From positions 62,001-126,000 of IMG/VR virus record IMGVR_UViG_3300046810_000101: DNA of 64,000 nt; one strand, given 5' to 3'. The first letter of the stretch is position 1; each line of letters opens with the position of its first letter. The translations under genes were made by a program, and so were the position numbers. Source of the DNA: a virus. Shown in pieces: positions 19,698-41,619 of the stretch. The notes under the pieces are model-generated. The model was given only the letters and a program-made list of their open reading frames with translations, was not told the DNA's origin and did no database searches.

Positions 19698-19773
19698 TTT
19701 GTAGCCCCTGTTTCGGTTGGTGTGATAGCAGTATAGCAAGGGTTTGCATTTGATGCAAACAATTCAATGCAAT

Positions 19774-19797
19774 AAAAAGCCCCGGTTAAGGGGCTTT
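19774..19797 (-). terminator. Terminator after 19816 gene
   Basis: Same GCCCCTTAACCGGGGC-T5 hairpin as at 19414. Confidence 0.9.
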
Positions 19798-19815
19798 GAG
19801 GGGTTGAACACTGGC

Positions 19816-20010
19816 CTATAGTGTTCGTTCGCATTCCTTTTGTGTCGGATAATGGTCACCGTCCCACTTGGTCGAGTGTGGTCCTACGGTGATACTGTTA
19901 CGTTTAGGCCGGTAGAAATAACCCTTATCGTCACGCATCAGCGCCCCGATAATTTTACCCTCAAGCAACACATGGCGCAGCATTTCCGGCTTCTTGGCTT
20001 TCGCTTTCAT
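19816..20010 (-). CDS. Hypothetical small basic protein
   Basis: 64 aa, basic at the N-terminus (MKAKAKKPEMLRHVLLEG). The rest is beta-like (GALMRDDKGYFYRPKRNSITVG). It follows the winged-helix gene by 9 nt and shares its promoter. Confidence 0.7.
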   Translation of the reverse strand: MKAKAKKPEMLRHVLLEGKIIGALMRDDKGYFYRPKRNSITVGPHSTKWDGDHYPTQKECERTL

Positions 20011-20019
20011 GTCAACCCC

Positions 20020-20610
20020 TTATGCCGCTTCTTTTGCAGCTTCGGCCAGTTTGTCGGCGTTGATGGTATAGAACACTTCCTTACGACCGGGACCGGATTT
20101 CAGCTTGTAACCGATACGGGTCAAAATGCCTTCTGATTCAGCCCAACGGATTGTGTTAGATACCGTTACCTTTTTGAGCTTAACCGTTTTGGCAGTAGCC
20201 TTTACAGTTACTTCAATTTCACCAGCCGCAGCCAGCTTGACAAATGCACCCACAACCCGGCGACGGACTTTAGCAGCTTCTGAGGAAATTGGACGGCCTA
20301 CGCCACGTTTTGCCGGTTGATTGGCGGTATTTGCACGGGTCATTGCATCATCAATCAACTTGTTGACCAGTTCCGGCGATTGCTTCGGCACTTCGACCAC
20401 CGGGGCTACAGGTGCGACGGTCACGGTTTCGACCTTTGCAGCCGCTGGCTTGCGGGTACGTTTGGCCGGGGCTGGCTTGGCTTCTGGGGTCTTGTTGACC
20501 ACCGGGGCTACAGCTTTCAGCTTGGGGCTGGCCTTTGCGGTTGCAGTCGGTTTTGCGGCCTTTGCTGGTTTGGCTTCGGCGGTCTTGGTAGTAGCGGCTG
20601 ATTTAGACAT
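20020..20610 (-). CDS. Histone H1-like tail plus winged-helix protein
   Basis: 196 aa. Residues 1-75 are a Lys/Ala/Pro-rich disordered tail (KPAKAAKPTATAKA, PAPAKRTRKPAAAK), as in bacterial H1-like proteins. Residues 105-190 form a helix-turn-helix/winged domain ending RIGYKLKSGPGRKEVFYTI. That ending matches RYGEKLPEGRGQRELIYKA of the 40441 gene. A DNA-binding role is inferred. A strong promoter TTTACA-N16-TATAAT lies just upstream. Confidence 0.65.
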   Translation of the reverse strand: MSKSAATTKTAEAKPAKAAKPTATAKASPKLKAVAPVVNKTPEAKPAPAKRTRKPAAAKVETVTVAPVAPVVEVPKQSPELVNKLIDDAMTRANTANQPAKRGVGRPISSEAAKVRRRVVGAFVKLAAAGEIEVTVKATAKTVKLKKVTVSNTIRWAESEGILTRIGYKLKSGPGRKEVFYTINADKLAEAAKEAA

Positions 20611-20691
20611 TTTTGAATTCCTTGAGTTAGTAAGTTGATTATATCAAACCCTGTAGGGTTGTAAAGTTCTTTTTGCATCAATTTCAGAATT

Positions 20692-21060
20692 TCAGGTTTG
20701 ACTAAACCAGCACCAAACCCACGACAAACCACAAACCAGCAACACAAACACCCCCAGACCTAACAACCTTTGACCGATTGCCACCGGGTCAGCTTCGACT
20801 GGTTCCGGGTCTGGTTCAATTTCGCCTATCGGCACCTTTTCAGGTGTGTCAAGGTTTTGATAGTTCCAACCTCTAGCCCGCTCGACTAACCGAAACTCTT
20901 TAAACCGCTTGACTGTCAAGGGTTGTTTAATTTCGACATACTCGACTAGGCTGATTTCTTTAGCGGCCCATCGTCGTTCTAGCTCCCTGTCAATAGCATC
21001 AATTTTTGCCAACCGTTTTTCGGCTGGGATCAATTCATGAATCAGGTTTCTGTTTCTCAT
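20692..21060 (-). CDS. C-tail-anchored membrane protein
   Basis: 122 aa. A charged helical N-terminal domain (AEKRLAKIDAIDRELERRW), an acidic Pro-rich linker (IEPDPEPVEADP) and a single C-terminal membrane span (about 100-118, LLGLGVFVLLVCGLSWVW). RBS AAGGAA, promoter TTGAAA-N16-TAGAAT. Not recognised. Confidence 0.7.
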   Translation of the reverse strand: MRNRNLIHELIPAEKRLAKIDAIDRELERRWAAKEISLVEYVEIKQPLTVKRFKEFRLVERARGWNYQNLDTPEKVPIGEIEPDPEPVEADPVAIGQRLLGLGVFVLLVCGLSWVWCWFSQT

Positions 21061-21135
21061 GTTCCTTACCTTTCATTCTATCAAACTCCCTGTAGATTTC
21101 AAGTTTAGATCAAAATATTTTTGAGGGTAGACCAG

Positions 21136-21260
21136 ACCAGACCAGACAACCCACAAATGGGGTATACAGCCCGAATATAATCAAAATACCATATGTTTTG
21201 ATGCAATGCAATAGCAAATCATGACAATATTTCATTTGCTTTAATCCTTATTTGATGCAT
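21136..21260. other. Short gene-free stretch with ACCAG tandem
   Basis: GACCAGACCAGACCAGAC is a short 5-bp tandem repeat. AT-rich sequence with TTTGATGCA words follows. No gene seen. Confidence 0.4.
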
Positions 21261-21272
21261 CAAATCCCGGAC

Positions 21273-21362
21273 AAAAAAAGCCCGCGAAGGTATGCGGACC
21301 TTCACGGGCTAGGGAGAACGGTTGTGGAGTGGACGCCACCAACCGAGCGCTTCCATACGCTT
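21273..21362 (-). ncRNA. Structured small RNA of about 90 nt
   Basis: A promoter TTGACA (21391-21396)-N16-TGC-TAGGGT (21369-21374), overlapping the stop codon of the 21393 gene, reads into about 90 nt with no ORF. The transcript would hold a stem CGGTTG-GTGG...CCA-CAACCG. It then ends in a very strong terminator, AGCCCGTGAAGGT...ACCTTCGCGGGCT followed by T7 (21274-21311). Family unknown; expression unproven. Confidence 0.6.
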
Positions 21363-21392
21363 AAATCAACCCTAGCACGCTCTAGCAGCCTG

Positions 21393-21665
21393 TCAAGGCT
21401 TGCCGTTTGCCCCTAGGCCGCTATTGCCCATGATCAGCTTGAGCGCGGTCCCTATATGTTCGTCATTCAGATAGGGATAAAGAACGTCACAAACAAACCG
21501 GTTTGACTTCTGGCCGTCGATTGTCGCGGCGTGCATTACGTCGAAGTTGAAACGCATATCAGACAACCCGGCGTTTTTGTAGTCTTGATATGCATTCGGG
21601 TTGACTCTGAGAACTTCCAAACATGCCGCTTTGAGTTTGGTAAAGTGTTCAAGTTTCATTTTCAT
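21393..21665 (-). CDS. Hypothetical small protein
   Basis: 90 aa, ATGA overlap with the 21662 gene. Mostly helical (LEHFTKLKAACLEVLRVNP). The C-terminus GNSGLGANGKP overlaps the -35 box of the RNA gene. Not recognised. Confidence 0.7.
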   Translation of the reverse strand: MKMKLEHFTKLKAACLEVLRVNPNAYQDYKNAGLSDMRFNFDVMHAATIDGQKSNRFVCDVLYPYLNDEHIGTALKLIMGNSGLGANGKP

Positions 21666-21919
21666 TTTTGCGAATCCTTCTTATCCAGAATCGCGACAAT
21701 TTTGTGATAGTAACCGTGTTCAACTTCGACAACCGAACCCACAACCGGGGAGACTTTCCCCCAGTGGAAATTAAGGTTTGGAACTGATTTTGCATTAGCC
21801 CCGACCGTCACAATAGTGAATTGATCAGTTGACAAATGACGCGGGCGAACAACCCGGTTCACAAAATCGGTGACTTGTGCATCGGTTACCATGTCAAGCT
21901 TTTTGAGTAGGTTTCGCAT
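21662..21919 (-). CDS. Hypothetical small protein
   Basis: 85 aa. The N-terminal half is helical, the C-terminal half SH3/beta-like (LNFHWGKVSPVVGSVVEVEHGYYHKIVAIL). A consensus promoter TTGACA-N16-TATAAT and RBS AAGGAGA suggest high early expression. Confidence 0.72.
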   Translation of the reverse strand: MRNLLKKLDMVTDAQVTDFVNRVVRPRHLSTDQFTIVTVGANAKSVPNLNFHWGKVSPVVGSVVEVEHGYYHKIVAILDKKDSQK

Positions 21920-21986
21920 TTTGAATCTCCTTTGTATATGGTTGATTATATAGGATCAAATTCTAGTGTCAAGGGTTTGATGCAAA

Positions 21987-22010
21987 TAAAACAGCCCCTT
22001 ACGGGGCTTT
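21987..22010 (-). terminator. Terminator overlapping end of 21999 gene
   Basis: AAAGCCCCGTAAGGGGCTGTTTTATT; the TAA stop forms the loop. Confidence 0.8.
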
Positions 22011-22820
22011 CTTGACCTTTGCCGGCTTGGCTGGCTTAGGTAGTTTCGGTTTGTTGATAATGGTTTGTTTCTGGCCGTTCCAGCCTTCCCGCTGCTCTTT
22101 CACGGTGCCGGTAATGGTAAAGGTTTGGCCGATTTCAATATCCTTGAACCCTTGCGCAACCGAGTAGAAAATAACCTCATTGCCTTCCGGGGTTTGTGCT
22201 GTATGCATCAGGGTAGGGTATTGGGATTGGGTCCAAAACACACGTTTTAGGGTCAGGGTCAATTCAATCGGTTGATCAACCGTGCCAACATAACCCGGCA
22301 GCTCTACGCCTGTTTCTTTAATGTAGTTTGCAGCGATTGCAACACATACCGCCATTTTGCCAGTGGCGTCGGTTTGTTGGGCAACCCAAAACAGATACCC
22401 CAGATCAGTCGCGGCCACTTCGGCAGCGGTCAAACCAGTGTGTTTGCCTAGGATGAAAACACCGGCTTGAATCTGTTCAACCTTTTCCGCTTCCCATGCC
22501 GCTACCCGTTCGGCGTAGGCACGTTCTGAGGCTTCACGTTTGGCAGTGGCTTCGGCATCACGTACCCGGCGAATTTCATTCAATTCAAAATCCGCGTTGC
22601 CTTTGAATGGCAGCCCCATCAGTGCCGACATTTCAACCGCTTTAGATTCGGCGGTATCCTTATCATTCGACAGGTTTTGAATGTAGTAGTCATTCATTTC
22701 TTTGAATGATTCAGCACCCCATTGCACAGTGTCAAGGCACATTACGCGCAAAGTGTACATAGCCACTTTGTCGCCGGTCGATATGAAAGTGTATTTTGCT
22801 TCGGAATTTGCGATTGCCAT
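21999..22820 (-). CDS. DUF3820-like plus OB-fold-like protein (putative)
   Basis: 273 aa. A helical, charged middle (90-118). Residues 121-147 read VFILGKHTGL...GYLFWVAQQ, resembling the FGK.kG...YL.W motif of DUF3820 and exonuclease accessory domains. The C-terminal 80 residues have an OB-fold pattern (IELTLTLKRVFW, GQTFTITGTVKEQREGWNGQKQT) and a Lys/Pro/Ala tail. A nucleic-acid-binding role is inferred. Promoter TTGACC-N16-TATACT. Confidence 0.5.
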   Translation of the reverse strand: MAIANSEAKYTFISTGDKVAMYTLRVMCLDTVQWGAESFKEMNDYYIQNLSNDKDTAESKAVEMSALMGLPFKGNADFELNEIRRVRDAEATAKREASERAYAERVAAWEAEKVEQIQAGVFILGKHTGLTAAEVAATDLGYLFWVAQQTDATGKMAVCVAIAANYIKETGVELPGYVGTVDQPIELTLTLKRVFWTQSQYPTLMHTAQTPEGNEVIFYSVAQGFKDIEIGQTFTITGTVKEQREGWNGQKQTIINKPKLPKPAKPAKVKKAP

Positions 22821-22929
22821 GTTCGTGACTCCCTTGGGTTAGGCGTGATTGCCTTTGCTTGTGGTCAGTATAATGGTTTTTGATGCATGGTCAAGCAATT
22901 TGATGCAATTATTTTAAAATAAATGAAAA

Positions 22930-22952
22930 AGCCCCTAGTCGGGGGCTTCTTC
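22930..22952 (-). terminator. Terminator after 22935 microprotein
   Basis: GCCCCCGACTAGGGGC followed by T5; it overlaps the TAG stop. Confidence 0.75.
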
Positions 22953-23081
22953 GGTCAACAGTTGGTCTAATTGTTCCTCTAGATCACCCTCTAGCGGGTC
23001 TTGACGGCATTCGGAATGATACCCTAACCGTTTAGATTCATCCGACCACAAAACGCCGTCACAGTCGCTACAGCGCTTCAC
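22935..23081 (-). CDS. 48-aa zinc-finger microprotein
   Basis: GTG start (23079-23081) overlaps the stop of the 23078 gene as GTGA. It contains C4-x2-C7 (CSDC) and H22-x2-C25 (HSEC), a likely single zinc site, and an acidic C-terminus (EGDLEEQLDQLLTEE). Too short for ordinary ORF cut-offs. Confidence 0.6.
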   Translation of the reverse strand: MKRCSDCDGVLWSDESKRLGYHSECRQDPLEGDLEEQLDQLLTEEAPD

Positions 23082-23395
23082 TGGATACCGCCATAGCGCC
23101 AGCTTTCAACCTTCTTGGCGTCCAACAGGTCGGCAACCGTTCCCCGTGGTTTGTTTTTGGCTGGGGCTTTCCAACCCGCCGATTTCCACAAGTTGCCTTG
23201 TTGATCCATGAACCCCCAGCAATAACAGCGGTCGCTTACGGTGCCGTCCTGATTCACGTCCGTGCTAACAAGGCGTGTCCAGACCTTGCCCGGTTCGGCA
23301 GATAGCAGCTTTTGACCATGCGGGCCACCGTTCGCGTTCAGGGTTTTGGTTGCGAAGTCCAGACCTTCGGCTAGTTGCTTGATCAATTCCGACAT
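23078..23395 (-). CDS. Hypothetical protein
   Basis: 105 aa. A helical N-terminus (SELIKQLAEGLDFATK) then beta segments with CYCWGFMDQQGNLWKSAGW. Cassette promoter with -10 at 23428. Not recognised. Confidence 0.7.
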   Translation of the reverse strand: MSELIKQLAEGLDFATKTLNANGGPHGQKLLSAEPGKVWTRLVSTDVNQDGTVSDRCYCWGFMDQQGNLWKSAGWKAPAKNKPRGTVADLLDAKKVESWRYGGIQ

Positions 23396-23457
23396 TTTGT
23401 AACCCTCAATTCGTTTGGTGTATGGTCAGTATACCGGGTATTTGATGCAATGCAAGC

Positions 23458-23781
23458 CTATCGGCTAACTTTATCTGGATTATTTTTAATCCATTCTTGC
23501 AACCGGGCTTGCCCTTGTTCCGCCGATTCTTTGATCAGTTCAGCCGGTTTATGTGGGAACCAATAAGCATCAGTATCAATATGAATAAAATTGCCGTATT
23601 TCATCAGGTTATGATCAGTTGTATCAAACCCGATAATTTCATGACCGGGGAATGGGATTCCATAGTCATTGATGAATGTTACGATGTCACCGACCTTTAG
23701 GTCACAGCCAGCCGGGGCGGTTTGTTCCAGCTTTGCCGCGTAGTCTATGGTATTGCCAAAGGTGTAAATTGCGTTTTTCAT
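23458..23781 (-). CDS. Hypothetical protein
   Basis: 107 aa from MKNAIYTFGN, after the leader GGGGCTACAAA. The centre is SH3/beta-like (CDLKVGDIVTFINDYGIPFPGHEIIGFD). Not recognised; cassette gene. Confidence 0.7.
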   Translation of the reverse strand: MKNAIYTFGNTIDYAAKLEQTAPAGCDLKVGDIVTFINDYGIPFPGHEIIGFDTTDHNLMKYGNFIHIDTDAYWFPHKPAELIKESAEQGQARLQEWIKNNPDKVSR

Positions 23782-23858
23782 TTTGTAGCCCCTGATTTGG
23801 TTGGTGTCCGGGTAGTATAGCAGGGGTTGTATTTGATGCAACCCCTTTATATCAAATT

Positions 23859-24221
23859 TTACATATCTTTTTTGCGCTTGACATCTTGGGTGTAATAGGT
23901 GATTCCCAATGCTTCCCGGACTTGCCAACCGGCGATAGCGTAACCATCAGGGGCATTCAAATAACCGTTTGCAATCAACCATTCGCCAGCGGTGACCAAA
24001 TAATGATCATCAAAACCGCTGTGCATTTCAGTTTTACCGAGTTCTTTCCAAGTATCCCCAACCCGGACGGAAATATACGCGACATGGTAGGTCGTGCCGC
24101 TATACCAGCGAACCCCCTTAATCGATATTTCATCAAATTCCGCAGACTTTTCAGTCAGGGAGACGGTGACCATAGACATTACGCCATTAATGCCACGGTG
24201 ACGGTATTCGATAGATTTCAT
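23859..24221 (-). CDS. Hypothetical protein
   Basis: 120 aa from MKSIEYRHRG. Beta-rich first half (VSLTEKSAEFDEISIKGVRWY), then VRVGDTWKELGKTEMH. Cassette promoter with -10 at 24256. Not recognised. Confidence 0.7.
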   Translation of the reverse strand: MKSIEYRHRGINGVMSMVTVSLTEKSAEFDEISIKGVRWYSGTTYHVAYISVRVGDTWKELGKTEMHSGFDDHYLVTAGEWLIANGYLNAPDGYAIAGWQVREALGITYYTQDVKRKKDM

Positions 24222-24300
24222 TTTTGAAACTCCTAAATTCGTTTGGTGTCCGGGTAGTATACAGGGGGTTGAATCAAATGCAACCCCCCTTTGCATCAAA

Positions 24301-24513
24301 TTAAAACAAAACTTTCAGGATTTCGTCAGGGGTAAACCCGGCAATCAACCGACGATAACTATCATCAGTCAACCCCATATCATGGAAGCGGGCATTTGAT
24401 ATGCCGGTTACTTTCAAAACCTTAGCTTTGAAGTCGTCGGCTATTACAGCGCCCGGTGTACCTTGAGCCAGTTCTAAGCAACATTCAATCTTGGCGTGCA
24501 TTCTGTCATTCAT
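24301..24513 (-). CDS. Hypothetical small protein
   Basis: 70 aa, helical. The segment ISNARFHDMGLTDDSYRRLIAGFTPDEI may be helix-turn-helix-like. Cassette gene, -10 at 24548. Confidence 0.65.
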   Translation of the reverse strand: MNDRMHAKIECCLELAQGTPGAVIADDFKAKVLKVTGISNARFHDMGLTDDSYRRLIAGFTPDEILKVLF

Positions 24514-24599
24514 GAATCAAACCCCTGTTTTCGTTTGGTGTAGGGTCAGTATAGCGGGTTGTGTATTTGATGCAAGCAATTTGATGCAATTATTTCAAA

Positions 24600-24695
24600 T
24601 TTTTTTGGAATTTTTATTACAGGCTCCCCCGGTGTTTGTCTCCGAGTCAAAAACCCCGCCTAGAACCAATCATAGTCTAGGCCGGGTTGTGTGTC
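24600..24695 (-). repeat. Dispersed promoter-bearing repeat, copy 3
   Basis: TTGACA-N17-TATGAT on the minus strand. The -10 sits in the loop of a GCCTAGA...TCTAGGC hairpin followed by GGGGTTTTT, so it can also terminate the 24698 gene. CTCGGAGACAAACACCGG then matches the copies near 18440-18600 and 32410. Confidence 0.6.
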
Positions 24696-24697
24696 AA

Positions 24698-24913
24698 TTA
24701 GTTTTGTTGTTTAATTGTTAGAGTGTCACCGTTCAACATTGCCACCACAAAAACCGATCCTAACCGTTTGATGATATAACGGCGGTGACAACCTTTCTCG
24801 CTTTCCCAATCCTTCAATTCCAGAACGTCGCCATATCGGCACAATTCTTTCTTGACAGTTTCCAGATGGTTGTTATTCAGTGCTTCTATGATTTGAGCTA
24901 ATTTCATGACCAT
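24698..24913 (-). CDS. Hypothetical small protein
   Basis: 71 aa. Helical N-terminus (MKLAQIIEALNNNHLETVKKELCRYG) then a beta hairpin (SVFVVAMLNGDTLTI). ATG codons exist at residues 1 and 3. Cassette gene. Confidence 0.68.
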   Translation of the reverse strand: MVMKLAQIIEALNNNHLETVKKELCRYGDVLELKDWESEKGCHRRYIIKRLGSVFVVAMLNGDTLTIKQQN

Positions 24914-24989
24914 TTTTCGATTCCCTTTGTTGGTTGGCTTTCCAAAAGTATAGCAGGGGTTGCATCAAATACAACCCCTATTTTGATTT

Positions 24990-25214
24990 TTAATAACCCC
25001 AGCTTTCGCGGGCGTACCGGTCAAGGTCGCCTAGCAGTTCTTCCTTACTTTTGTACTGGGGGCCAACCACACGCGGTACGCCTTGGGAGTTCAACACGCT
25101 TTCATGCAAGTCAACCACACGCCACAATGCATGGCCTTGATGCCAGTAGCCCAAACCAGCAAACCGGGTTTTTATAATCTTGAAAGTGCCACCTACATGC
25201 GTTGATGTGACCAT
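24990..25214 (-). CDS. Hypothetical small protein
   Basis: 74 aa. Basic beta-like N-terminus (TFKIIKTRFAGLGYWHQGHALWRVVDL) and a helical C-terminus ending ARESWGY. Cassette gene, -10 TAGAAT at 25250. Confidence 0.68.
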   Translation of the reverse strand: MVTSTHVGGTFKIIKTRFAGLGYWHQGHALWRVVDLHESVLNSQGVPRVVGPQYKSKEELLGDLDRYARESWGY

Positions 25215-25296
25215 GATTTGATTCCTTGTTTCGGTTGGTGTGTGGGGTTATTCTATCAAAACCCCCGGCGAATGCAAGGGGTTTGATGCAATTATT

Positions 25297-25509
25297 TTAA
25301 ACGCTTATCCGCAAATTCAAATGCCGACCATTCAGGGACTCTAAAACTGATTCAATCAATTGCAATTCAGCCGCCCATATTGTCGCCTGTCTTACTACTT
25401 GCGGGTTTTCATCCCGGCTTTCGTGACACACTTTTATTGCAGCTTCCCGGCTGGCCTTTGCATTTTCCAGTAGTTCGGCGGTTTGCTTTGCATTCGCGAG
25501 CTTGACCAT
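25297..25509 (-). CDS. Hypothetical helical protein
   Basis: 70 aa, almost entirely helical (MVKLANAKQTAELLENAKAS). Cassette gene with TAGAAT -10 at 25542. Confidence 0.68.
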   Translation of the reverse strand: MVKLANAKQTAELLENAKASREAAIKVCHESRDENPQVVRQATIWAAELQLIESVLESLNGRHLNLRISV

Positions 25510-25585
25510 TTTGAATCTCCTGTTTCGGTTGGTGTATGATCATTCTAGCAAGGGTTTACATCAAATGCAAACCCTTTTGCATCAA

Positions 25586-25918
25586 TTATTTTCGGATTCC
25601 GATTGTCTTGGCGACAATCCCCATAAATTCCTCATAGTCGGCCTTCGCATCTTGATCACACGCCAGCCAATCGCCAAAATTTGGGTATGGGCTTAGATAA
25701 ATTTCATCACAATCCCCCGGACGGGTTGCACACTTCGGAATCAATTCCAATGCGTAGCTGGCGGTTCCGTACACGGTTTTCAGTTCAAATGCAAACCGAC
25801 GATAACCGAAAGTTATGATTTGATCCAAACCATACATATTAAATTTCGATTTGAATTTCTTGCCGCCATTCTTGACAAAGGCCGAGACGTATGCTTTTGC
25901 CATTGGGTGCTGATTCAT
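25586..25918 (-). CDS. Hypothetical protein
   Basis: 110 aa from MNQHPMAKAY. The longer frame is only promoter sequence. An alpha/beta pattern with GYRRFAFELKTVYGTASYALEL. Cassette gene. Not recognised. Confidence 0.7.
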   Translation of the reverse strand: MNQHPMAKAYVSAFVKNGGKKFKSKFNMYGLDQIITFGYRRFAFELKTVYGTASYALELIPKCATRPGDCDEIYLSPYPNFGDWLACDQDAKADYEEFMGIVAKTIGIRK

Positions 25919-26004
25919 GTTAGAGCCTCTTTCCGGTTGGTGTAGGGTCATTATGACAGGTATTTGATGCAATGCAAGCATTTGATGCAATTATTTTCAG
26001 ATAA

Positions 26005-26027
26005 CAAAAAGCCCCTTCCGGGGCTTC
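26005..26027 (-). terminator. Terminator after 26030 gene
   Basis: AGCCCCGGAAGGGGCTTTTTGTT on the minus strand. Confidence 0.85.
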
Positions 26028-26029
26028 TG

Positions 26030-26236
26030 TTAGTTGATACCATGCAACTCCCGCCAAATATCGCTTAGATACCGTTCAACGTCGGTTATTGCGATATAGC
26101 CTTGCAGTTCACTAGGCCCGGTGAATTTGGGGCTAGCCAAGTGTGCGCGAAACGCTTGCAAACTATCATCAGCCAAGTTAATGCGGCTGGTCAATTCGTC
26201 TAGTTCGGCCTGTAGTTTGGCGGTTGGGGTTGGCAT
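26030..26236 (-). CDS. Hypothetical coiled-coil protein
   Basis: 68 aa from MPTPTAKLQAELDELTSRIN, helical with heptads; second helix YIAITDVERYLSDIWRELHG. Cassette gene, -10 at 26270. Confidence 0.68.
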   Translation of the reverse strand: MPTPTAKLQAELDELTSRINLADDSLQAFRAHLASPKFTGPSELQGYIAITDVERYLSDIWRELHGIN

Positions 26237-26311
26237 GTCCTTAGTTCCTTGTTTTTGGTTGGTATGGTCAGTATACCGACTGTACAAGCCACGTCAAGCA
26301 ATTGCATCAAA

Positions 26312-26557: not shown

Positions 26558-26624
26558 GGTGTTGCCTCCTTTGCTTGTCTGGGGTCAGTATGATGCAACC
26601 TAGAAGCCACGTCAAGCAATTGCA

Positions 26625-26998: not shown

Positions 26999-27000
26999 AG

Positions 27001-27348: not shown

Positions 27349-27359
27349 AACTCCCCCGA

Positions 27360-27914: not shown

Positions 27915-27918
27915 AGGA

Positions 27919-33844: not shown

Positions 33845-33845
33845 G

Positions 33846-34130: not shown

Positions 34131-34191
34131 GATCAAATCCCTGTTTCGGTTGGTATGGGGTTAGTATAACCCCATTTGATGCAATTGCAAA

Positions 34192-34440: not shown

Positions 34441-34515
34441 TTCAAAACCCTCTTTTCGTTTGGTGTGATAGAAGTATAATAGGGGATTGCATCAAATGCA
34501 ACCCCCTATTTGATT

Positions 34516-34839: not shown

Positions 34840-34841
34840 TT

Positions 34842-35222: not shown

Positions 35223-35296
35223 TTCAAAAATTCCCTGTTTCGGTTGGTGTATGATCAGTATAATAGGGATTGCATCAAATGCAACCCCTATTTGAT

Positions 35297-35515
35297 TTAA
35301 ATCTGGTGTGGTGTAAACGTCATACCTTTAGCCGGACCATCAACCCCCATGCAAACAGATTGGGCCTTGATTGCAGCAGCTTGGGCCTGTTCGAAGGTAT
35401 CAAACTGCATAGCCAGCTTGATAGAACCCATGCAAGCGGTCCCCCACGTATCGCACCACTCATGCAAATAATCAGAACCGGATATCCCATAGGTACGCTT
35501 TACTACATAAGCCAT
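35297..35515 (-). CDS. Hypothetical small protein
   Basis: 72 aa from MAYVVKRTYGISG. Contains WCDTWGTACMGSIKLAMQFDTFEQAQ. Cassette gene, -10 at 35547. Confidence 0.68.
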   Translation of the reverse strand: MAYVVKRTYGISGSDYLHEWCDTWGTACMGSIKLAMQFDTFEQAQAAAIKAQSVCMGVDGPAKGMTFTPHQI

Positions 35516-35590
35516 GATCAAACCCCTTTTCGTTTGGTGTGATAGCAGTATAGCAAGGGGTTGTATTTGATGCAACCCCCTTTGATGCAA

Positions 35591-35800
35591 TTATTTTTCC
35601 CAATCATGCAAAGTTGTGGTGATTTCCTCAAACCCATTACCTGCATCATCAAACCAGCACCGCACAACCGCACGACGCCCAGCTATGACCGTTTCGATTT
35701 TCGGGTCTTCAACCAAACCGGAAACATCACCCAACACTTCAACCGATACGCGATTGGTCCAATTGGTGATTTTTACAAACTTCACGATTTGGTTTGACAT
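35591..35800 (-). CDS. Hypothetical small protein
   Basis: 69 aa, beta-rich (VKFVKITNWTNRVSVEVLGDV). Cassette gene, -10 TAGAAT at 35833. Confidence 0.68.
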   Translation of the reverse strand: MSNQIVKFVKITNWTNRVSVEVLGDVSGLVEDPKIETVIAGRRAVVRCWFDDAGNGFEEITTTLHDWEK

Positions 35801-35875
35801 TTTGTAGTCCCTGTTTCGGTTGGTGTAAGATCATTCTATAGGGGTTTGCATCAAATTGCAAACCCCTATTTGATT

Positions 35876-36325
35876 TTATTTGTGGTTCTTTTTGGCTTCG
35901 GTCAGGTCAGCAATCAATTTGTTTTGTTGGTTGACTTCCCATTCAATTTGGTCTACCACATAAACCGCTTGACCTTTTTCGTTTGCACCGTTTTGAACTT
36001 GACGGGCCTTCGCTTGTGCTATCCGCAAATCATTGTAACGGGTTGCGTTTTGGACAGTAGCCCAGCCAGCGGTGTCGCCTTCAAACTTGACACATACACG
36101 CAATTTGCCAGTGATAACCATGTAACCGGTTGGGTTAGTTGCTTTGAAAGCTTCCAGCCGTGCTATGTAGCCTTGCGATTCGGTAATCATGCCGTTAATC
36201 ATGTCAATCATTGGGTTTACCTTCTGGTTTAGGTGTTTCAGGCACAGGGCGAACGTGGCTGCATAGTTGTCACCCGGTTGAATGATTTCTTTAGTCAACT
36301 TGTGGGCTTGGGCAAATGCGTTCAT
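35876..36325 (-). CDS. Hypothetical coiled-coil-ended protein
   Basis: 149 aa. Helical N-terminal half, then beta segment GYMVITGKLRVCVKFEGDTAGW and a C-terminal coiled coil (VNQQNKLIADLTEAKKNHK). Cassette gene, -10 at 36359. Confidence 0.7.
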   Translation of the reverse strand: MNAFAQAHKLTKEIIQPGDNYAATFALCLKHLNQKVNPMIDMINGMITESQGYIARLEAFKATNPTGYMVITGKLRVCVKFEGDTAGWATVQNATRYNDLRIAQAKARQVQNGANEKGQAVYVVDQIEWEVNQQNKLIADLTEAKKNHK

Positions 36326-36500
36326 GTTCGTATTCCCTGTTTCGGTTGGTGTAAGGTCAGTATACGCCTAATTTGATGCAATGCAACCCATTTGATGCAA
36401 TTATTTTAAAATAGTTGTGGGAAATATTCGTGCCAATACCTTTTTGGGGTCGTCAATCCATTTTCTCATATTTTTCTAGGGGATGTCAATACCAACAGAC

Positions 36501-36527
36501 AAAATAAAACCCGGACAATGCCGGGTC
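36501..36527 (-). terminator. Terminator after 36537 gene
   Basis: ACCCGGCATTGTCCGGGTTTTATTTT on the minus strand. The rest of 36370-36500 holds TTTGATGCAA words and no gene. Confidence 0.85.
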
Positions 36528-36536
36528 AAGGTGTTG

Positions 36537-36788
36537 TTACATCACTCGGTTTATCGGATCAATACTAAACAATACTTGCTCATGTAGTGCGGTTTGACAG
36601 TCTTGCAGAGTCTTGAATCGATGTTCAAAGATGGTAACGCCGAGTTTATCCTTGACTGAATAACCGTTATCATGTGCATCGATAACAAAGGTCAGGCAAT
36701 GCGTCCCCAACATATCAAAGTTAATAACAACGTCGGCATGGTAACGCCCGACATATAAGCCACGTAACAAGATCCTATCAATACGCAC
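36537..36788 (-). CDS. Hypothetical protein
   Basis: 83 aa, beta-rich (IDRILLRGLYVGRYHADVVI), then a helix (LQDCQTALHEQVLFS). Third gene of the 37231-promoter transcript. Confidence 0.68.
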   Translation of the reverse strand: MRIDRILLRGLYVGRYHADVVINFDMLGTHCLTFVIDAHDNGYSVKDKLGVTIFEHRFKTLQDCQTALHEQVLFSIDPINRVM

Positions 36789-36796
36789 AAAACCCC

Positions 36797-37003
36797 CTAG
36801 AACGCTGTCAGGCGAACGAAAGAACCACCCTTTACCAGATCATGTACCAGTTCAGCGCCTTGCACAGCCAGTTCATAGGAACCGTCAATTTGCAGCCAGT
36901 GAGTTGAACCCTCATGATAGCTATCGGTAATCACCCCGATAGTTTCCATGTCTTGGTTGGTTCTGGCTTCTTCGCCCATCAACGCCTTGTGATTATATGT
37001 CAT
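36797..37003 (-). CDS. Hypothetical small protein
   Basis: 68 aa from MTYNHKALMG. GGAGG lies 7 nt upstream, which decides the start. Contains HWLQIDGSYELAVQGAELVHDL. Confidence 0.7.
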   Translation of the reverse strand: MTYNHKALMGEEARTNQDMETIGVITDSYHEGSTHWLQIDGSYELAVQGAELVHDLVKGGSFVRLTAF

Positions 37004-37005
37004 GT

Positions 37006-37203
37006 TCAAACCTCCTTTACAACAAACGCATCAAAGGGATAATCATGCGAAACGTTACCGGTCTTGGTTTCGATAGTCAAGGTGATCCACCCGTCGTGAT
37101 CCTCGAAACAACGGCTTACTAGTTTGCCCATGACCAGTTCGCCACTAACTACCATAGCGATGATGTTACCAATTTTTGCATCAACCGCGTTTATCAATTG
37201 CAT
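37006..37203 (-). CDS. Hypothetical SH3-like small protein
   Basis: 65 aa: AVDAKIGNIIAMVVSGELVMG then DGWITLTIETKTG; a beta-barrel pattern. First gene after -10 at 37231. Confidence 0.68.
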   Translation of the reverse strand: MQLINAVDAKIGNIIAMVVSGELVMGKLVSRCFEDHDGWITLTIETKTGNVSHDYPFDAFVVKEV

Positions 37204-37272
37204 GTTTGTCGCTCCCTTGTTGGTGATTAGATTCTAGCAAGGGGCTGCAATTGATGCAACCCCTATTTGATG

Positions 37273-37443
37273 TTATTCGATAGACCAACCGGCAATATCA
37301 GACATCAACCATTTAGCATCAGACCGGCCAGACTTGCGGTTAATGATGTTGATGGATTCGCCGTTGAATTCCACCCGGTACAGAATCAACGAATAAGAAT
37401 TTGTCCCGGCATCCTCAAACAGCAAACGAAAGAGTATAGGCAT
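37273..37443 (-). CDS. 56-aa hypothetical protein
   Basis: ATG 37441-37443, right after the 37446 stop. MPILFRLLFEDAGTNSYSLI, then NIINRKSGRSDAKWLMSD. Below 60 codons. Confidence 0.65.
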   Translation of the reverse strand: MPILFRLLFEDAGTNSYSLILYRVEFNGESINIINRKSGRSDAKWLMSDIAGWSIE

Positions 37444-37445
37444 GA

Positions 37446-37664
37446 TTATTCCCCCAAAAACTTTGCATAGGCAGCTTCACGTTTAGCGGTGCATATGTCT
37501 TTTGAATCGGTCAATTGGACTTTTTCAGCACAGCCAGCCGAATAGCCAGCCTGAAACGTTTTATAGCCATTCGGTTGGGTTGTTGCATTGAATGGGTTTT
37601 CTTTATAGTAACCCAGCGAGCCGGCCCGATAAGCGTATTCAAAGATTTCTTTTTGACTGGCCAT
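37446..37664 (-). CDS. Hypothetical small protein
   Basis: 72 aa, Tyr/Ala-rich (FEYAYRAGSLGYYKENPF; FQAGYSAGCAEKV). Cassette gene, -10 at 37697. Confidence 0.68.
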   Translation of the reverse strand: MASQKEIFEYAYRAGSLGYYKENPFNATTQPNGYKTFQAGYSAGCAEKVQLTDSKDICTAKREAAYAKFLGE

Positions 37665-37741
37665 TTCGATATTCCCTGTTTCGGTTGGTGTGATAGCAGT
37701 ATAAAAGGGATTGCATCAAATTACAACCCCTTTCTATCAAA

Positions 37742-38053
37742 TTATTTTCCGGCTTTAGTCATCATGACCAGTTCGTTATGGTTACGGCAGATCATGGCCG
37801 CGTTAGGGATTTGATTCATCCAGTCCTCAAACCCATGCTTGACAAACCGAGATTTCATCACATCCAGAACCGCGAATTTCATTTCTTCAACGGTTGGGGA
37901 TTCTTCCAGCACAGCCCGACGATAATCATCGGCAGTTGCATAACCGTTGGTTACAAAGTAACGCATACGATCATTAGCCGACGCCTTCTTACCTTCAAAC
38001 CATGCCGCTTTGACTTGGGTTTGTATGTTCGCTGGGAGGCTGGAAAGTTTCAT
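37742..38053 (-). CDS. Hypothetical helical protein
   Basis: 103 aa, helical (QTQVKAAWFEGKKASANDRM; TVEEMKFAVLDVMKSRF). Cassette gene, -10 at 38086. Confidence 0.7.
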   Translation of the reverse strand: MKLSSLPANIQTQVKAAWFEGKKASANDRMRYFVTNGYATADDYRRAVLEESPTVEEMKFAVLDVMKSRFVKHGFEDWMNQIPNAAMICRNHNELVMMTKAGK

Positions 38054-38140
38054 GTCATTAACCCTGTTTCGGTTGGTGTATGGTCAGTATAGCCCCTGTA
38101 CATTCAGAGTCAAGCAATTTGATGCAATTATTTTAAGAAA

Positions 38141-38168
38141 AGAAAAAGCCCCTAGAATCAGGGGCTTA
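38141..38168 (-). terminator. Terminator after 38171 gene
   Basis: AAGCCCCTGATTCTAGGGGCTTTTTC, identical stem to that at 27889. Confidence 0.88.
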
Positions 38169-38170
38169 TT

Positions 38171-38554
38171 TTAGAATTCTTCTTTTCGTTCCATATCCCG
38201 GAAATATCCTTGACTGTCAAGGGTTTGATATGCATTAGAGCCGTATCTAGGATCAGTTTCAATCCAGTGCATAGGGTCAAGCTTACCGCCTGCATTCACG
38301 AATAACCGGATTCTTTCGGCCAATGCTTCGGCCTTGTTAGATGATTCTTCGCGAAGGTCTTCAAAAAACACCATGCCGTCGCAGTCCTCACCGCCTTCTA
38401 TACGCTTAGCAGCATCAAAGCGGGCAGTATGTATCCACCGTTGGCCGTTAGGGGCTTCGGCTTCAATGTAATAGCGTTCGGCTATGAATGCTTCGCCGTC
38501 CTCAGTTAAACCGTAGTTAAACAGATCAGATGCAACCCCGATTTCTAAAGCCAT
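38171..38554 (-). CDS. Hypothetical protein
   Basis: 127 aa from MALEIGVASD (GGGG upstream). Beta-rich with FIAERYYIEAEAPNGQRWIH and an acidic patch GGEDCDGMVFFEDLRE. Cassette gene, -10 TAGAAT at 38585. Confidence 0.7.
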   Translation of the reverse strand: MALEIGVASDLFNYGLTEDGEAFIAERYYIEAEAPNGQRWIHTARFDAAKRIEGGEDCDGMVFFEDLREESSNKAEALAERIRLFVNAGGKLDPMHWIETDPRYGSNAYQTLDSQGYFRDMERKEEF

Positions 38555-38631
38555 GATCAAAACCCCTTTGTTTGGTGTATGGTTATTCTAACAGACCACA
38601 TCCAACCGTCAAGGGTTTGATGCAATTATTT

Positions 38632-38808
38632 TCAAATTAGCCGATAGATTGCAACACCTACCGGAATGCAATAGAAAGGACACGCCAGAACAAACCAACC
38701 CCAGCGAGTTCTAGACGGTATAGGAGGCGTGATATTACGGCACCAGCCTATCACCAGCAAAACCAATCCAATGGCAGCCATCGACGCCATAGAGCTGTTA
38801 AAATTCAT
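38632..38808 (-). CDS. 58-aa membrane protein
   Basis: ATG 38806-38808. Two hydrophobic segments (AAIGLVLLVIGW and WFVLACPFYCIPVGVAI) separated by a basic/Pro loop. Last of a run of tiny membrane proteins (38632-39651). Confidence 0.6.
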   Translation of the reverse strand: MNFNSSMASMAAIGLVLLVIGWCRNITPPIPSRTRWGWFVLACPFYCIPVGVAIYRLI

Positions 38809-38838
38809 ATGTTAATAAACCCTCAGAATCGCCCAAAT

Positions 38839-39021
38839 TCAGCCAGAATAATACCCTTTATAAACCTCAGTCCCGGCCACGGTTAAGACAATTAGAATAG
38901 AAACAATAATAGACAACCGGAATTGCCCCCGAGCTTGTGTATCTGTACTAGAACGAAAACCCCAGTAACTAAAACAACCAATAACCAAATTCATCAATCC
39001 AAAACCAATCATAGAATTCAT
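38839..39021 (-). CDS. 60-aa two-pass membrane protein
   Basis: Hydrophobic MIGFGLMNLVIGCFSYWGF and LSIIVSILIVLTVAGTEV, with a polar loop between. ATGA overlap with the 39018 gene. Confidence 0.65.
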   Translation of the reverse strand: MNSMIGFGLMNLVIGCFSYWGFRSSTDTQARGQFRLSIIVSILIVLTVAGTEVYKGYYSG

Positions 39022-39203
39022 TGATTCGCCCCAGATCGTTTAAACCATGCACAATATACAACATAAGCACAGGAAACAATAGCAATCAACAAACCAGAAT
39101 CAAAAGCAATAACCTGCCAAAAGGAATGTCTAGGCATATGGTTAATCGCATAGACAATAACCATATTAGAAACAATACAAACGATAAACGCAATATAGAA
39201 CAT
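39018..39203 (-). CDS. 61-aa two-pass membrane protein
   Basis: Segments FYIAFIVCIVSNMVIVYAI and SGLLIAIVSCAYVVYCAWF. Coupled to its neighbours. Confidence 0.65.
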   Translation of the reverse strand: MFYIAFIVCIVSNMVIVYAINHMPRHSFWQVIAFDSGLLIAIVSCAYVVYCAWFKRSGANQ

Positions 39204-39463
39204 TATTGACCACGCATCCCAATATCATGGGGAATAAAAGAATCACCGATAACCCGGCATTCATATAGGTGAACCAATCCACCATTAGGCAGCTTGTAAT
39301 AGTTCATATTGTGTCGGGTACAGTCAAACTCCTTATTGATGTTAGCCAATAAGAAAGCCTTGTTATCAGCAGTATAATGCCCATAACCAAACAAACCACA
39401 GGAACGCCATAGAGCTTTACCGTGTAGCTTGATACGGGTTAATTTTTTAGGTGATAGATCCAT
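39203..39463 (-). CDS. Hypothetical protein
   Basis: 86 aa from MDLSPKKLTRIKL. Contains CGLFGYGHYTADNKAFLLANINKEF and GGLVHLYECRVIGDSFIPH. The only soluble protein among small membrane proteins. Confidence 0.68.
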   Translation of the reverse strand: MDLSPKKLTRIKLHGKALWRSCGLFGYGHYTADNKAFLLANINKEFDCTRHNMNYYKLPNGGLVHLYECRVIGDSFIPHDIGMRGQ

Positions 39464-39465
39464 GA

Positions 39466-39651
39466 TCAACCCCAGATAATCATTAGAGAGTCATACACAA
39501 CATATACGTTTAGGCATACGGATACATTCAAACCAATGAGTGAACCACGCCAGACAATCAAATTAGGTTTGTCTTGAGCTACCCACAAACCAATCCCGGA
39601 TAGAATGATAATGACCAATGCTGCAATGACCAGATAGAACGCCAAATCCAT
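39466..39651 (-). CDS. 61-aa two-pass membrane protein
   Basis: Segments AFYLVIAALVIIILSGIGLWV and LIGLNVSVCLNVYVVYDSL. First gene of the operon; promoter TTGTAT-N16-TAATCT with -10 at 39685. Confidence 0.65.
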   Translation of the reverse strand: MDLAFYLVIAALVIIILSGIGLWVAQDKPNLIVWRGSLIGLNVSVCLNVYVVYDSLMIIWG

Positions 39652-39664
39652 GATGAATCCCCTA

Positions 39665-40099
39665 TCAGTGAGTTACTAGACAATAGATTAGCACATTAGA
39701 AACAGAATACAAGGGTTATTTGCATCTAAATCAACCCATATATTGGGATTGATCAAAATATAATCTATATCGATTTGGAAGGTATTTTATAGGAGGAATA
39801 TCAGGGGAATAGATATAGGATAGGGAATCCACGCGGGGCTTATAGAATAAGGCTTATGGTTGAATGAATCGATGGGGAATAGGTTAGGAATTGATGGTGT
39901 ATCGATTTCAATACAGTGGAATGAAAACGTTACAGTAATTTTAGGGGTTTGTTCATGCTTCCTAGTGAGTGTGTTATATTTTGATGCATTTATTTTTGCA
40001 TCAAATCCTGCAATAGCATCAAATTGCAGCAGATTTCACCACAAGTCCCTAGCATGATTCGAAATAATTCACTAGTATTCCATCAAATTGCAGCAGATT
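39665..40099. other. Gene-free stretch with repeats
   Basis: Only the 39685 promoter is recognisable. The rest is AT/G-rich on the plus strand (TTAGGAATTGATGG, also near 41780). CATCAAATTGCAGCAGATTTCACC occurs at 40017-40040 and again at 40081-40104, into the end of the next gene. No gene seen. Confidence 0.55.
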
Positions 40100-40330
40100 T
40101 CACCGATACACGGTTTTGGTCTGATTCCCCGGCAGCATCAGCCACACAATAAACGATACAACAGACAGAACCATCATACCGATATAGACCATTCCCCCGT
40201 GGTGGATAATTTGATCCATTTGAACTAGGCGTAAATGCGGTGGGGTTCTATCCCATGCTGCGAATATACCTAAGAACGCCATAGGCATACTACTAACTAC
40301 CAGAAAGATTGCGATATAAAAGAGTTTCAT
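40100..40330 (-). CDS. Two-pass membrane protein
   Basis: 76 aa, segments FYIAIFLVVSSMPMAFLGIF and VYIGMMVLSVVSFIVWLML. Promoter TTGACA-N16-TATCAT, -10 at 40363. Confidence 0.65.
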   Translation of the reverse strand: MKLFYIAIFLVVSSMPMAFLGIFAAWDRTPPHLRLVQMDQIIHHGGMVYIGMMVLSVVSFIVWLMLPGNQTKTVYR

Positions 40331-40396
40331 AAGTCACCGTTTGGGTTAGGAGGTTTGATTAGATGATAGACTACCAAAACAGAATGTCAAGTAAAA

Positions 40397-40421
40397 CAAA
40401 AAGCCCCGGTTAAGGGGCTTT
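40397..40421 (-). terminator. Terminator after 40441 gene
   Basis: AAAGCCCCTTAACCGGGGCTTTTTG, same stem as 19414. Confidence 0.9.
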
Positions 40422-40440
40422 GACTACCTATCAGGATCTA

Positions 40441-40938
40441 TTAGACTGGTGTACTCGGTACGGTTCCTGCTTTATAAATCAGTTCCCGCTGGCCGCGACC
40501 TTCTGGGAGTTTTTCACCGTATCGGGTCACAATGCCTTGAGCTTCCAGATAGTTGACAGCGTTCCGGGTTTGGATTCTATCAGCTTTCATTGCTTCGGTC
40601 ACTTCGGCAATGGTGAAATAAGTAATTTCTTTCGTTTGCAACGCTTCAATGATAGCGTTACGGATTTCGAGTTGTTCGGCGCTTGGGTTACGACCTGCCG
40701 AGCCTTTAGAGTCATTGGCCGGGTCACCAGCTCCATTCGGTTGGGTTGCAGCCTTGGAAGCCCTTCCAGAAGCTTTAGGAGGCTTCGAGCCTTGAGCCCC
40801 GCCGATACTCGCCAAAGCTTCTTTGGCTTTGATCAGTGCCGATTCAGCGGAGTCTACCGCCATGTTTGCGAGTTCCAGAACGTTAACCACGTTAGCGGCT
40901 TGGGTATTCTGGGTTGCTGCTTTAGATACTTGGCGCAT
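40441..40938 (-). CDS. Winged-helix DNA-binding protein, paralogue of 20020 gene
   Basis: 165 aa. Helical N-terminus, a Lys/Ala/Gly/Pro linker (SKPPKASGRASKAATQ). The C-terminal winged helix (IRNAIIEALQTKEITYFTIAEV...ARTR-type recognition region) ends RYGEKLPEGRGQRELIYKA. The end matches the 20020 protein. DNA binding inferred. Confidence 0.65.
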   Translation of the reverse strand: MRQVSKAATQNTQAANVVNVLELANMAVDSAESALIKAKEALASIGGAQGSKPPKASGRASKAATQPNGAGDPANDSKGSAGRNPSAEQLEIRNAIIEALQTKEITYFTIAEVTEAMKADRIQTRNAVNYLEAQGIVTRYGEKLPEGRGQRELIYKAGTVPSTPV

Positions 40939-40984
40939 TTTTGAAACTCCTAAACAATCAAATTGGGTTGGTCGGTTGATAATG

Positions 40985-41141
40985 CGAACCTAGGCAATTG
41001 ATGATTAGTGCGTGAATCTTGTTACAAGTTCCTTTAAATCTGTATTCCCTTTCGGTGATGTCATTATGGTCATGGGGTTCTATGGTGTCAAGCCCCAGAA
41101 CAAAATATTTTTGATTCAATTCCTAGGATTGGATCACATAC
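40985..41141 (-). promoter_or_regulatory. Promoter and long leader of 40441 gene
   Basis: TTGACA-N17-CATAAT (-10 at 41063-41068), then a cassette-like leader and an RBS (AAAGGAAC) followed at once by TTG TAA. This may be a decayed gene start about 90 nt before the true ATG. Confidence 0.5.
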
Positions 41142-41170
41142 GAAAAAGCCCCGGTTTCCCGAGGCTTTTC
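41142..41170 (-). terminator. Terminator after 41186 gene
   Basis: AAGCCTCGGGAAACCGGGGCTTTTTC on the minus strand. Confidence 0.85.
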
Positions 41171-41185
41171 AATGCTTTACAGTTT

Positions 41186-41563
41186 TTACTTTTCGAACGT
41201 GGTGATATGTACAACCCGATCAAAGCTAAAACCGTCTTCCCTTGCTTTCTTGATTGCAGCCACTTCGGCTACCGCATCCGTTAACGCTTGAACCTCATAC
41301 GTTACTTCTACCGGTTCGCCCCACTTTCTATGCTGTATTTCCCTGCATTCTATCGTAATGCGTTTATAGACCTTTGTAGGTCGTTCTAGCCTTGGTGCTG
41401 GAAGCTTCGCCACCAACGGACCTTTATGTTTCCCTAGCTTCTTATCCCGCTTAGCTCGTTTGGCTTGTCGCTTAGCTTCTTCGGCTTCAAGCTTTTGTTG
41501 GTGTGCGTATGCTTCCAAATTAGCCCACGCTTTTATTTCGGCTTCCAGATCCTTATAACTCAT
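41186..41563 (-). CDS. Hypothetical highly basic coiled-coil protein
   Basis: 125 aa. A helical Lys/Arg/Ala-rich segment (EEAKRQAKRAKRDKKLGKH) precedes a beta-like domain (YKRITIECREIQHRKWG). Nucleic-acid binding plausible. Promoter TTGACT-N16-TAGAAT (-10 at 41599). Confidence 0.68.
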   Translation of the reverse strand: MSYKDLEAEIKAWANLEAYAHQQKLEAEEAKRQAKRAKRDKKLGKHKGPLVAKLPAPRLERPTKVYKRITIECREIQHRKWGEPVEVTYEVQALTDAVAEVAAIKKAREDGFSFDRVVHITTFEK

Positions 41564-41619
41564 TGCTAACCCCTATATGGTTTGGTTGGTGTATGCCCAT
41601 TCTATACCATAGAGCATAC

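What the first reader, a model, noticed from the sequence alone, without database searches (positions are those of the whole stretch)
19698..41604. Over 30 near-identical stem-loop/promoter/leader cassettes shuffle small early genes
Seen: nearly every small gene from 19.4 to 41.6 kb is preceded by the same block (hairpin with TTTGATGCAA words, TTGCAT/TTGTAT-N16-17-TATACT promoter, leader GACCATACACCAACCGAAACAGG). Each is followed by TAAAATAATTGCATCAAA at the stop. Known: T4-type phages carry promoter early stem-loop (PeSL) cassettes thought to drive modular gene exchange. Inference: this phage has an expanded version in which homologous blocks let single genes be gained, lost or swapped while staying under early control.
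Basis: partly seen in the sequence, partly recalled or inferred. Interest (0 to 1): 0.8.

Follow-up and report, generated by a model that had tools for sequence, protein, structure and literature searches.

The report
Swappable promoter–hairpin cassettes in T4-like phage
A 22-kb stretch of a Pseudomonas-type, T4-like phage carries 37 copies of a compact promoter-plus-hairpin block, mostly one per small gene or short gene pair; in related phages the borders of exchanged genes fall inside these blocks, so they act as the joints at which single genes were swapped, a divergent form of the known T4 'PeSL' cassettes.

Summary
The repeat is real. 37 blocks, all on the minus strand, lie between 41,626 and 19,758; none on the plus strand, and only six weak hits elsewhere in the 168-kb genome. 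They are variable rather than near-identical. Each has a σ70-type promoter, a leader (consensus ACACCAACCGAAACAGG) and an ATG about 32 nt past the -10. In about half, a hairpin sits inside the promoter: its 5' arm contains the -35 and its 3' arm ends at the -10. The rest lack it, and these more often have an ordinary terminator upstream. The same architecture occurs in three more IMG/VR phages and in Pseudomonas phages Milchi and Astolliot. Homology ends cluster in blocks, some blocks are chimeras of two blocks in a relative, and a few genes have moved singly. This supports the PeSL-like reading. However, gene turnover is no higher than in the neighbouring block-free small-gene region, so blocks mark the joints but are not shown to raise the exchange rate. 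New point: the repeated word (TTGATGCAA) sits at two preferred promoter positions and is replaced wholesale (GGTTTGATA/TTGATACAA) in the more distant relative G003, as an operator tracking a regulator would be. No expression data exist.

The parts
41568..41650 (-). block, no promoter hairpin (-35 at 41626)
41033..41115 (-). weak block with canonical upstream terminator (-35 at 41091)
38554..38636 (-). block (-35 at 38612)
38055..38137 (-). block, no promoter hairpin, canonical terminator upstream (-35 at 38113); upstream half matches one G001 block exactly
37668..37750 (-). hairpin block (-35 at 37726)
37201..37283 (-). hairpin block (-35 at 37259)
36328..36410 (-). direct-repeat block (-35 at 36386)
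35803..35885 (-). hairpin block (-35 at 35861)
35517..35599 (-). hairpin block (-35 at 35575)
35226..35308 (-). hairpin block (-35 at 35284)
34443..34525 (-). hairpin block (-35 at 34501)
34132..34214 (-). block without promoter hairpin (-35 at 34190)
33559..33641 (-). block; inverted repeat includes the word (-35 at 33617)
33237..33319 (-). hairpin block (-35 at 33295)
32267..32349 (-). direct-repeat block (-35 at 32325)
31860..31942 (-). hairpin block (-35 at 31918)
31582..31664 (-). hairpin block (-35 at 31640)
31197..31279 (-). hairpin block, chimeric relative to two G001 blocks (-35 at 31255)
30676..30758 (-). hairpin block (-35 at 30734)
30058..30140 (-). weak block without hairpin (-35 at 30116)
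29655..29737 (-). direct-repeat block, terminator upstream (-35 at 29713)
29279..29361 (-). hairpin block (-35 at 29337)
28666..28748 (-). block without hairpin (-35 at 28724)
28342..28424 (-). hairpin block (-35 at 28400)
27804..27886 (-). block without hairpin, terminator upstream (-35 at 27862)
26557..26639 (-). block, long inverted repeat with the word (-35 at 26615)
26239..26321 (-). block without hairpin (-35 at 26297)
25919..26001 (-). direct-repeat block, terminator upstream (-35 at 25977)
25512..25594 (-). hairpin block (-35 at 25570)
25219..25301 (-). inverted-repeat block, arms flank the -35 (-35 at 25277)
24916..24998 (-). hairpin block (-35 at 24974)
24517..24599 (-). direct-repeat block (-35 at 24575)
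24225..24307 (-). hairpin block (-35 at 24283)
23783..23865 (-). hairpin block (-35 at 23841)
23397..23479 (-). block without hairpin (-35 at 23455)
22836..22918 (-). block, terminator upstream; clearest chimera: 5' part matches G001 block 20891, leader matches G001 block 21246 exactly (-35 at 22894)
19700..19782 (-). block with canonical terminator and promoter stem (-35 at 19758)
19452..41563 (-). array of about 58 small genes (median 82 aa), mostly without known function, served by the blocks
20020..20610 (-). DNA-binding candidate: GRP (AT-hook-like) motif plus C-terminal winged helix; homologues in all relatives examined; possible regulator of the words (inference)
40441..40938 (-). paralogue of the 20020-20610 protein at the other border of the array, C-terminal winged-helix fold predicted

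Best explanation
The blocks are PeSL-type composite regulatory cassettes (early promoter plus stem-loop), in a compact, divergent form. Each block closes the transcription unit of the gene before it and opens the next one: the stop codon sits in or near the A/T-rich -50/-38 segment, then come the -35, the spacer, the -10, a shared 5' leader with RBS, and the ATG. In about half of the blocks the stem-loop is built into the promoter (5' arm = GGGG plus the -35, 3' arm = spacer up to the -10), so it is present only in read-through RNA from upstream. Many of the others have a conventional terminator just upstream instead. Because all blocks share sequence, homologous recombination between non-orthologous blocks can add, delete or replace exactly one ORF and give it a working promoter and leader. 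Shown: anatomy, conservation in six phages, hairpin, junctions in blocks, chimeric blocks, single-gene moves. Inferred: early transcription from the -10s, 3'-end formation at the hairpin, and the recombination mechanism itself.
For: 37 blocks against 0 on the other strand and none in shuffles. Same architecture in G001, G002, G003, Milchi and Astolliot. Hairpin in the -35/-10 segment: 95 of 156 blocks z<-2, sense strand more stable than antisense in 113 against 42 (p=9e-11); G-U exceeds A-C in stems outside the -35, 31 against 8 (p=3e-4). Promoter hairpin and canonical upstream terminator nearly exclude each other (3/96 against 22/60, p=3.8e-8). Homology ends are enriched in blocks. At single-gene indels, W 22894 and W 31255 resemble the first G001 block in their 5' part and the second in their leader, with the leader of 22894 identical to the second. 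Gene W_13 (37690..37444, leader to stop, 85% DNA identity) sits between other neighbours in G003. RB49 PeSL-region promoters have leaders like ACACCCATCGAAACGAAACA and hairpins in the spacer (5/29) or over the -10 (10/29). AsiA homologue present.
Against: Small-gene turnover is equal in the adjacent block-free region. W and G001 are fully collinear, so rearrangement is rare at that distance. Group statistics for the two halves of the block are weak (leader p=0.04, other parts n.s.). The promoter hairpin is not followed by a U-run, so its terminator role is unproven. Part of the G-U bias could come from the constrained -35 arm. No transcript data.
Confidence: 0.72

Rival explanations
1. Operator regulon: the repeated word is the binding site of a trans-acting, probably phage-encoded regulator (candidate: the winged-helix paralogues at 20020-20610 and 40441-40938). 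The blocks are alike because they are co-regulated promoters, and the exchange of genes at them is a by-product.
For: 33 of 36 own blocks carry at least one word, centred near -44 and/or -24 to -32, in both orientations. The word changes wholesale in G003 (TTTGATG 12, TTTGATA 55, against 60 and 14 in the window) while the leader consensus stays. Winged-helix proteins with GRP motif occur in all relatives examined; recognition-helix sequence KKxTVSNTIRWAE in the three phages with TTGATGCAA, MHVSNAMRWAE in G003 and Milchi; fold matches to MarR/ArsR/ROK-type repressors.
Against: No binding evidence. G003 is also more distant overall (61% median aa identity), so helix and word may simply follow phylogeny. 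Word switching could also come from homogenisation by recombination. Global TM-scores of the fold matches are low because the N-terminal half is disordered.
Confidence: 0.3
2. Concerted evolution only: the words and leaders are kept alike by gene conversion among blocks and need no bound factor; different lineages drift to different words.
For: Blocks recombine; lineage-specific words.
Against: The word switched in blocks of different layout that share little beyond it, whereas the leader consensus did not switch; preferred positions of the word in the promoter.
Confidence: 0.25
3. Ordinary repeated early promoters of a T4-like phage; similarity is functional convergence and recombination at them is not special.
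For: Small-gene turnover is the same without blocks; T4-like phages have many early promoters (PMC1524935).
Against: Hairpin and leader conservation go beyond promoter needs; homology ends enriched in blocks; chimeric blocks.
Confidence: 0.2

Closest known systems
PeSL cassettes (promoter-early stem-loops) of RB49/phi1, PST/T4 and nt-1/KVP40 (Arbiol et al. 2010, GBE 2:140; Comeau et al. 2014, GBE 6:1611; neither paper was available, content recalled and cited through PMC4503421)
   Same: Composite of sigma70-like early promoter and stem-loop, repeated before small non-essential genes; gene indels bordered by the cassette; RB49 leader ACACCCATCGAAACGAAACA resembles ACACCAACCGAAACAGG; some RB49 stem-loops also lie inside the promoter
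   Different: Here 37 copies are packed into one 22-kb stretch; the stem usually embraces the -35 and spacer with no U-run; a lineage-specific word recurs at two preferred positions
T4-type early promoters with UP-like A-rich segment (PMC1524935)
   Same: sigma70-type early promoters before novel ORFs, A-rich upstream segment
   Different: No repeated word or spacer hairpin described in the passages read
Repeated 'phage-specific promoter' motif of Pseudomonas phage pf16 (PMC5587285)
   Same: T4-like Pseudomonas phage with a repeated motif annotated upstream of many genes
   Different: No block of this architecture found in the two stretches of pf16 examined
Stoperators and repressor operators of mycobacteriophage L5 type (from memory)
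   Same: Many dispersed copies of a short word in intergenic regions, which could serve one regulator
   Different: No repressor shown; here the words overlap early promoters of a T4-like phage

Membership tests
PeSL cassettes of T4-like phages | strong sigma70-like early promoter before small ORFs | tested here: met
   TTGNAT/TTGACN-N16/17-TATACT type, 27-46 nt before the ATG; activity not measured
PeSL cassettes of T4-like phages | stem-loop attached to the promoter | tested here: met
   95/156 blocks z<-2 in six phages; many others have a canonical terminator upstream
PeSL cassettes of T4-like phages | stem-loop is an effective transcription terminator | tested here: inconclusive
   No U-run after the promoter hairpin, yet mutual exclusion with canonical terminators; termination itself cannot be tested here
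PeSL cassettes of T4-like phages | located in hyperplastic regions rich in small non-essential genes | tested here: met
   Confined to 19.7-41.6 kb, median gene 82 aa, variable content; essentiality not testable
PeSL cassettes of T4-like phages | gene indels and replacements between relatives have their borders at the cassettes | tested here: met
   Enrichment of homology ends and chimeric blocks; turnover not higher than in the block-free region
PeSL cassettes of T4-like phages | recombination between cassettes gives small circular DNAs | not testable with these tools
   Needs phage DNA or particles
T4-like phage (carrier) | T4-type genes rIIA, rIIB, long tail fibre, AsiA | tested here: met
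   PHROG matches, AsiA PF09010 over cut-off
Operator regulon (stoperator-like) | a DNA-binding protein recognises the word | not testable with these tools
   Winged-helix candidate only

The most novel reading that the evidence does not exclude
The 37 promoters form one regulon whose operator word is read by a phage-encoded winged-helix protein. Protein and word changed together in another lineage (G003), so the word works as a lineage 'password': an exchanged gene that brings only its leader and ORF takes on the recipient's promoter half and is thereby placed under the recipient's control.
Probability: 0.2. Interest if true: 0.8.

Novelty: new variant of a known kind. Interest (0 to 1): 0.52.

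Why it matters
How phages trade single small genes (many presumed host-takeover or anti-defence functions) while keeping them expressed is an open question. Here three fairly close genomes and three more distant ones show the joints directly, with chimeric blocks at single-gene indels, a hairpin folded into the promoter, and a word that differs wholesale between lineages. It extends the PeSL idea from enterobacterial and Vibrio T4-like phages to a Pseudomonas-type lineage and suggests a testable regulator/operator pair. It also provides a control that tempers the claim: nearby small genes without such blocks turn over just as much.

Tried and rejected
Intrinsic terminator on the sense strand at the promoter hairpin: rejected as canonical, no U-run. 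Words as genome-wide repeats: rejected, those outside the array are mostly in coding frames. Free shuffling of gene order among close relatives: rejected, tau 1.00. Blocks raise gene turnover: not supported. G003 as a very close sister with switched words: rejected as first framed; its 90-95% identical genes are islands in a 61% background. Further IMG/VR contigs with the leader or hairpin word: chance hits or the same lineage. pf16 motif as the same leader: not confirmed. MotA search: no hit in the own genome, but the control rang nowhere, so it says nothing. Key PeSL papers not held in the library. DNA similarity in the phage collection: only short patches in Milchi, Astolliot and vB_PpS_SYP.
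Full report
WHAT IS THERE. The window is positions 62,001-126,000 of a 167,826-base IMG/VR virus record. It carries rIIA, rIIB and long-tail-fibre genes, and the genome has an AsiA homologue, so it is T4-like; the nearest isolates are Pseudomonas phages Milchi and Astolliot. A weight matrix made from the first blocks finds 37-38 blocks on the minus strand and none on the plus strand; shuffled sequence reaches a score of 7 while blocks reach 57 (rebuilt matrix). A scan of the genome gives 37 hits in the array and 6 weak ones elsewhere. The word TTTGATGCAA occurs 49 times in the window against 0.4 expected; the copies outside the array are mostly inside coding sequence.

ANATOMY. Read 5' to 3' on the minus strand, a block has an A/T-rich segment that often contains the upstream stop codon, a -35 (TTGCAT, TTGTAT or TTGACN), a spacer of 16-17, a -10 (TATACT or TAGAAT), a leader with consensus ACACCAACCGAAACAGG, and an ATG 27-46 nt behind the -10. 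In hairpin blocks the stem is, for example, AGGGGTTGYAT / ATGCAACCCCT: the 5' arm contains the -35 and the 3' arm fills the spacer. In the other blocks the word is repeated directly (AATTGCATCAAATGCTTGCATTGCATCAAAT) or not paired. Over six phages 95 of 156 blocks fold with z below -2, and the sense strand is more stable than the antisense strand in 113 cases against 42. Outside the -35 hexamer G-U exceeds A-C in stems, 31 to 8. This favours selection on RNA read through from upstream over a plain DNA palindrome, although the constrained -35 arm may add to the bias. G003 also has stems with the arms reversed (CCCC 5', GGGG 3'), so pairing and not one sequence is kept.

TERMINATION. The promoter hairpin is not followed by a U-run. 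Canonical terminators stand before 22 of 60 blocks without a promoter hairpin but before only 3 of 96 with one (p=3.8e-8). The hairpin therefore seems to take the place of the terminator, perhaps by forming or protecting the 3' end or with polymerase bound at the promoter as a roadblock; this is inference. Lack of room behind the upstream stop codon could also contribute to the exclusion.

RELATIVES. The same blocks occur in IMG/VR records G001 (3300047444_000299) and G002 (3300005534_000011), and in Milchi and Astolliot, and with another word in G003 (3300042013_000056). Own genome and G001 share 41 genes of the region in identical order (tau 1.00), G002 27 of 28, while against Milchi and Astolliot the order is largely lost (tau about 0.3). 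Between W and G001, 21 of 36 intervals between shared genes differ in content (4 with extra genes in W, 7 with extra genes in G001, 10 replacements).

JUNCTIONS. Ends of homologous DNA segments fall in blocks more often than circular shifts predict: W-G003 16/36 against 5.0 (p=0.002), W-G001 19/42 against 5.8 (p=0.0015), W-G002 p=0.03; three other pairs trend the same way. At single-gene indels, block W 22894 has the upstream part of G001 block 20891 and the exact leader of G001 block 21246, and W 31255 has the promoter half of G001 11743 and a leader closer to that of G001 11967; a gene lies between the two blocks in G001 each time. Pooled statistics on block halves are weaker (leader p=0.04, others not significant). 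Single genes moved: W_13 (37690..37444, 85% DNA identity from leader to stop) lies in G003 between orthologues of W_20 and W_21; 23 of 27 W-G003 pairs remain collinear.

CONTROL. Small genes in the block-free 42-64 kb stretch are lost or gained as often (28/48 shared with G001) as in the array (29/55; p=0.69). The blocks are where the joints lie; that they raise the rate is not shown.

THE WORD. In the window the word sits at two preferred places, centred near -44 and near -24 to -32, in both orientations, and 33 of 36 blocks have at least one. In G003 it is replaced wholesale (TTTGATG 60 to 12; TTTGATA 14 to 55; GGTTTGATA 3 to 38) while the leader consensus stays. G003 is at 61% median protein identity, against 85% for G001, so this is not a recent switch. 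Two paralogous proteins near the borders of the array (20020-20610 and 40441-40938) have a GRP or related GR motif and a predicted winged helix, with fold matches of the first to MarR/ArsR/ROK-type regulators. Their recognition helices differ between phages with different words. This makes them candidates, nothing more.

KNOWN KIND. RB49, where PeSLs were described, was examined directly: its promoters carry the leader ACACCCATCGAAACGAAACA and hairpins over the -10 (10 of 29) or in the spacer (5 of 29), or a terminator just upstream. The window's blocks are therefore best called a dense, divergent form of PeSL. The two PeSL papers could not be read; their claims are taken from memory and from PMC4503421.

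Noticed in passing
window 60712, 41.7 kb, 40.4 kb, 39712, 32471 (minus strand); also in G003: A second promoter-like family with the word ATTCTGTTT (or AAACAGAAT) between -35 and -10, with partners in G003; possibly another temporal class.
   Followed up: partly
window 21999-23395 against G003: Two adjacent genes are 90-95% identical in protein to G003 although the genome median is 61%: likely recent exchange between the lineages.
   Followed up: partly
window 20020-20610 and 40441-40938: Paralogous winged-helix proteins near both borders of the block array; homologues in all relatives examined.
   Followed up: yes
G000:138777-138971 (outside the window): AsiA homologue (PF09010, E=8.5e-10); the MotA search gave no hit but its control was also silent.
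   Followed up: partly
window 38632-39651: Run of short, hydrophobic, probably membrane-spanning proteins of about 60 aa, some unique to this phage.
   Followed up: no
window 41091, 38113, 29713, 27862, 25977, 22894, 19758 (upstream of these blocks): Recurrent near-identical canonical terminators of the form AAGCCCC..GGGGCTTTTT before blocks without a strong promoter hairpin; AAGCCCCT occurs 13 times in the array.
   Followed up: partly
OM982621 (Astolliot) record: Taxonomy line of the record says Otagovirus although the genome is 173.6 kb and T4-like; probably mislabelled.
   Followed up: no
window 42-64 kb: Block-free array of small minus-strand genes with gene turnover as high as in the block array.
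   Followed up: yes
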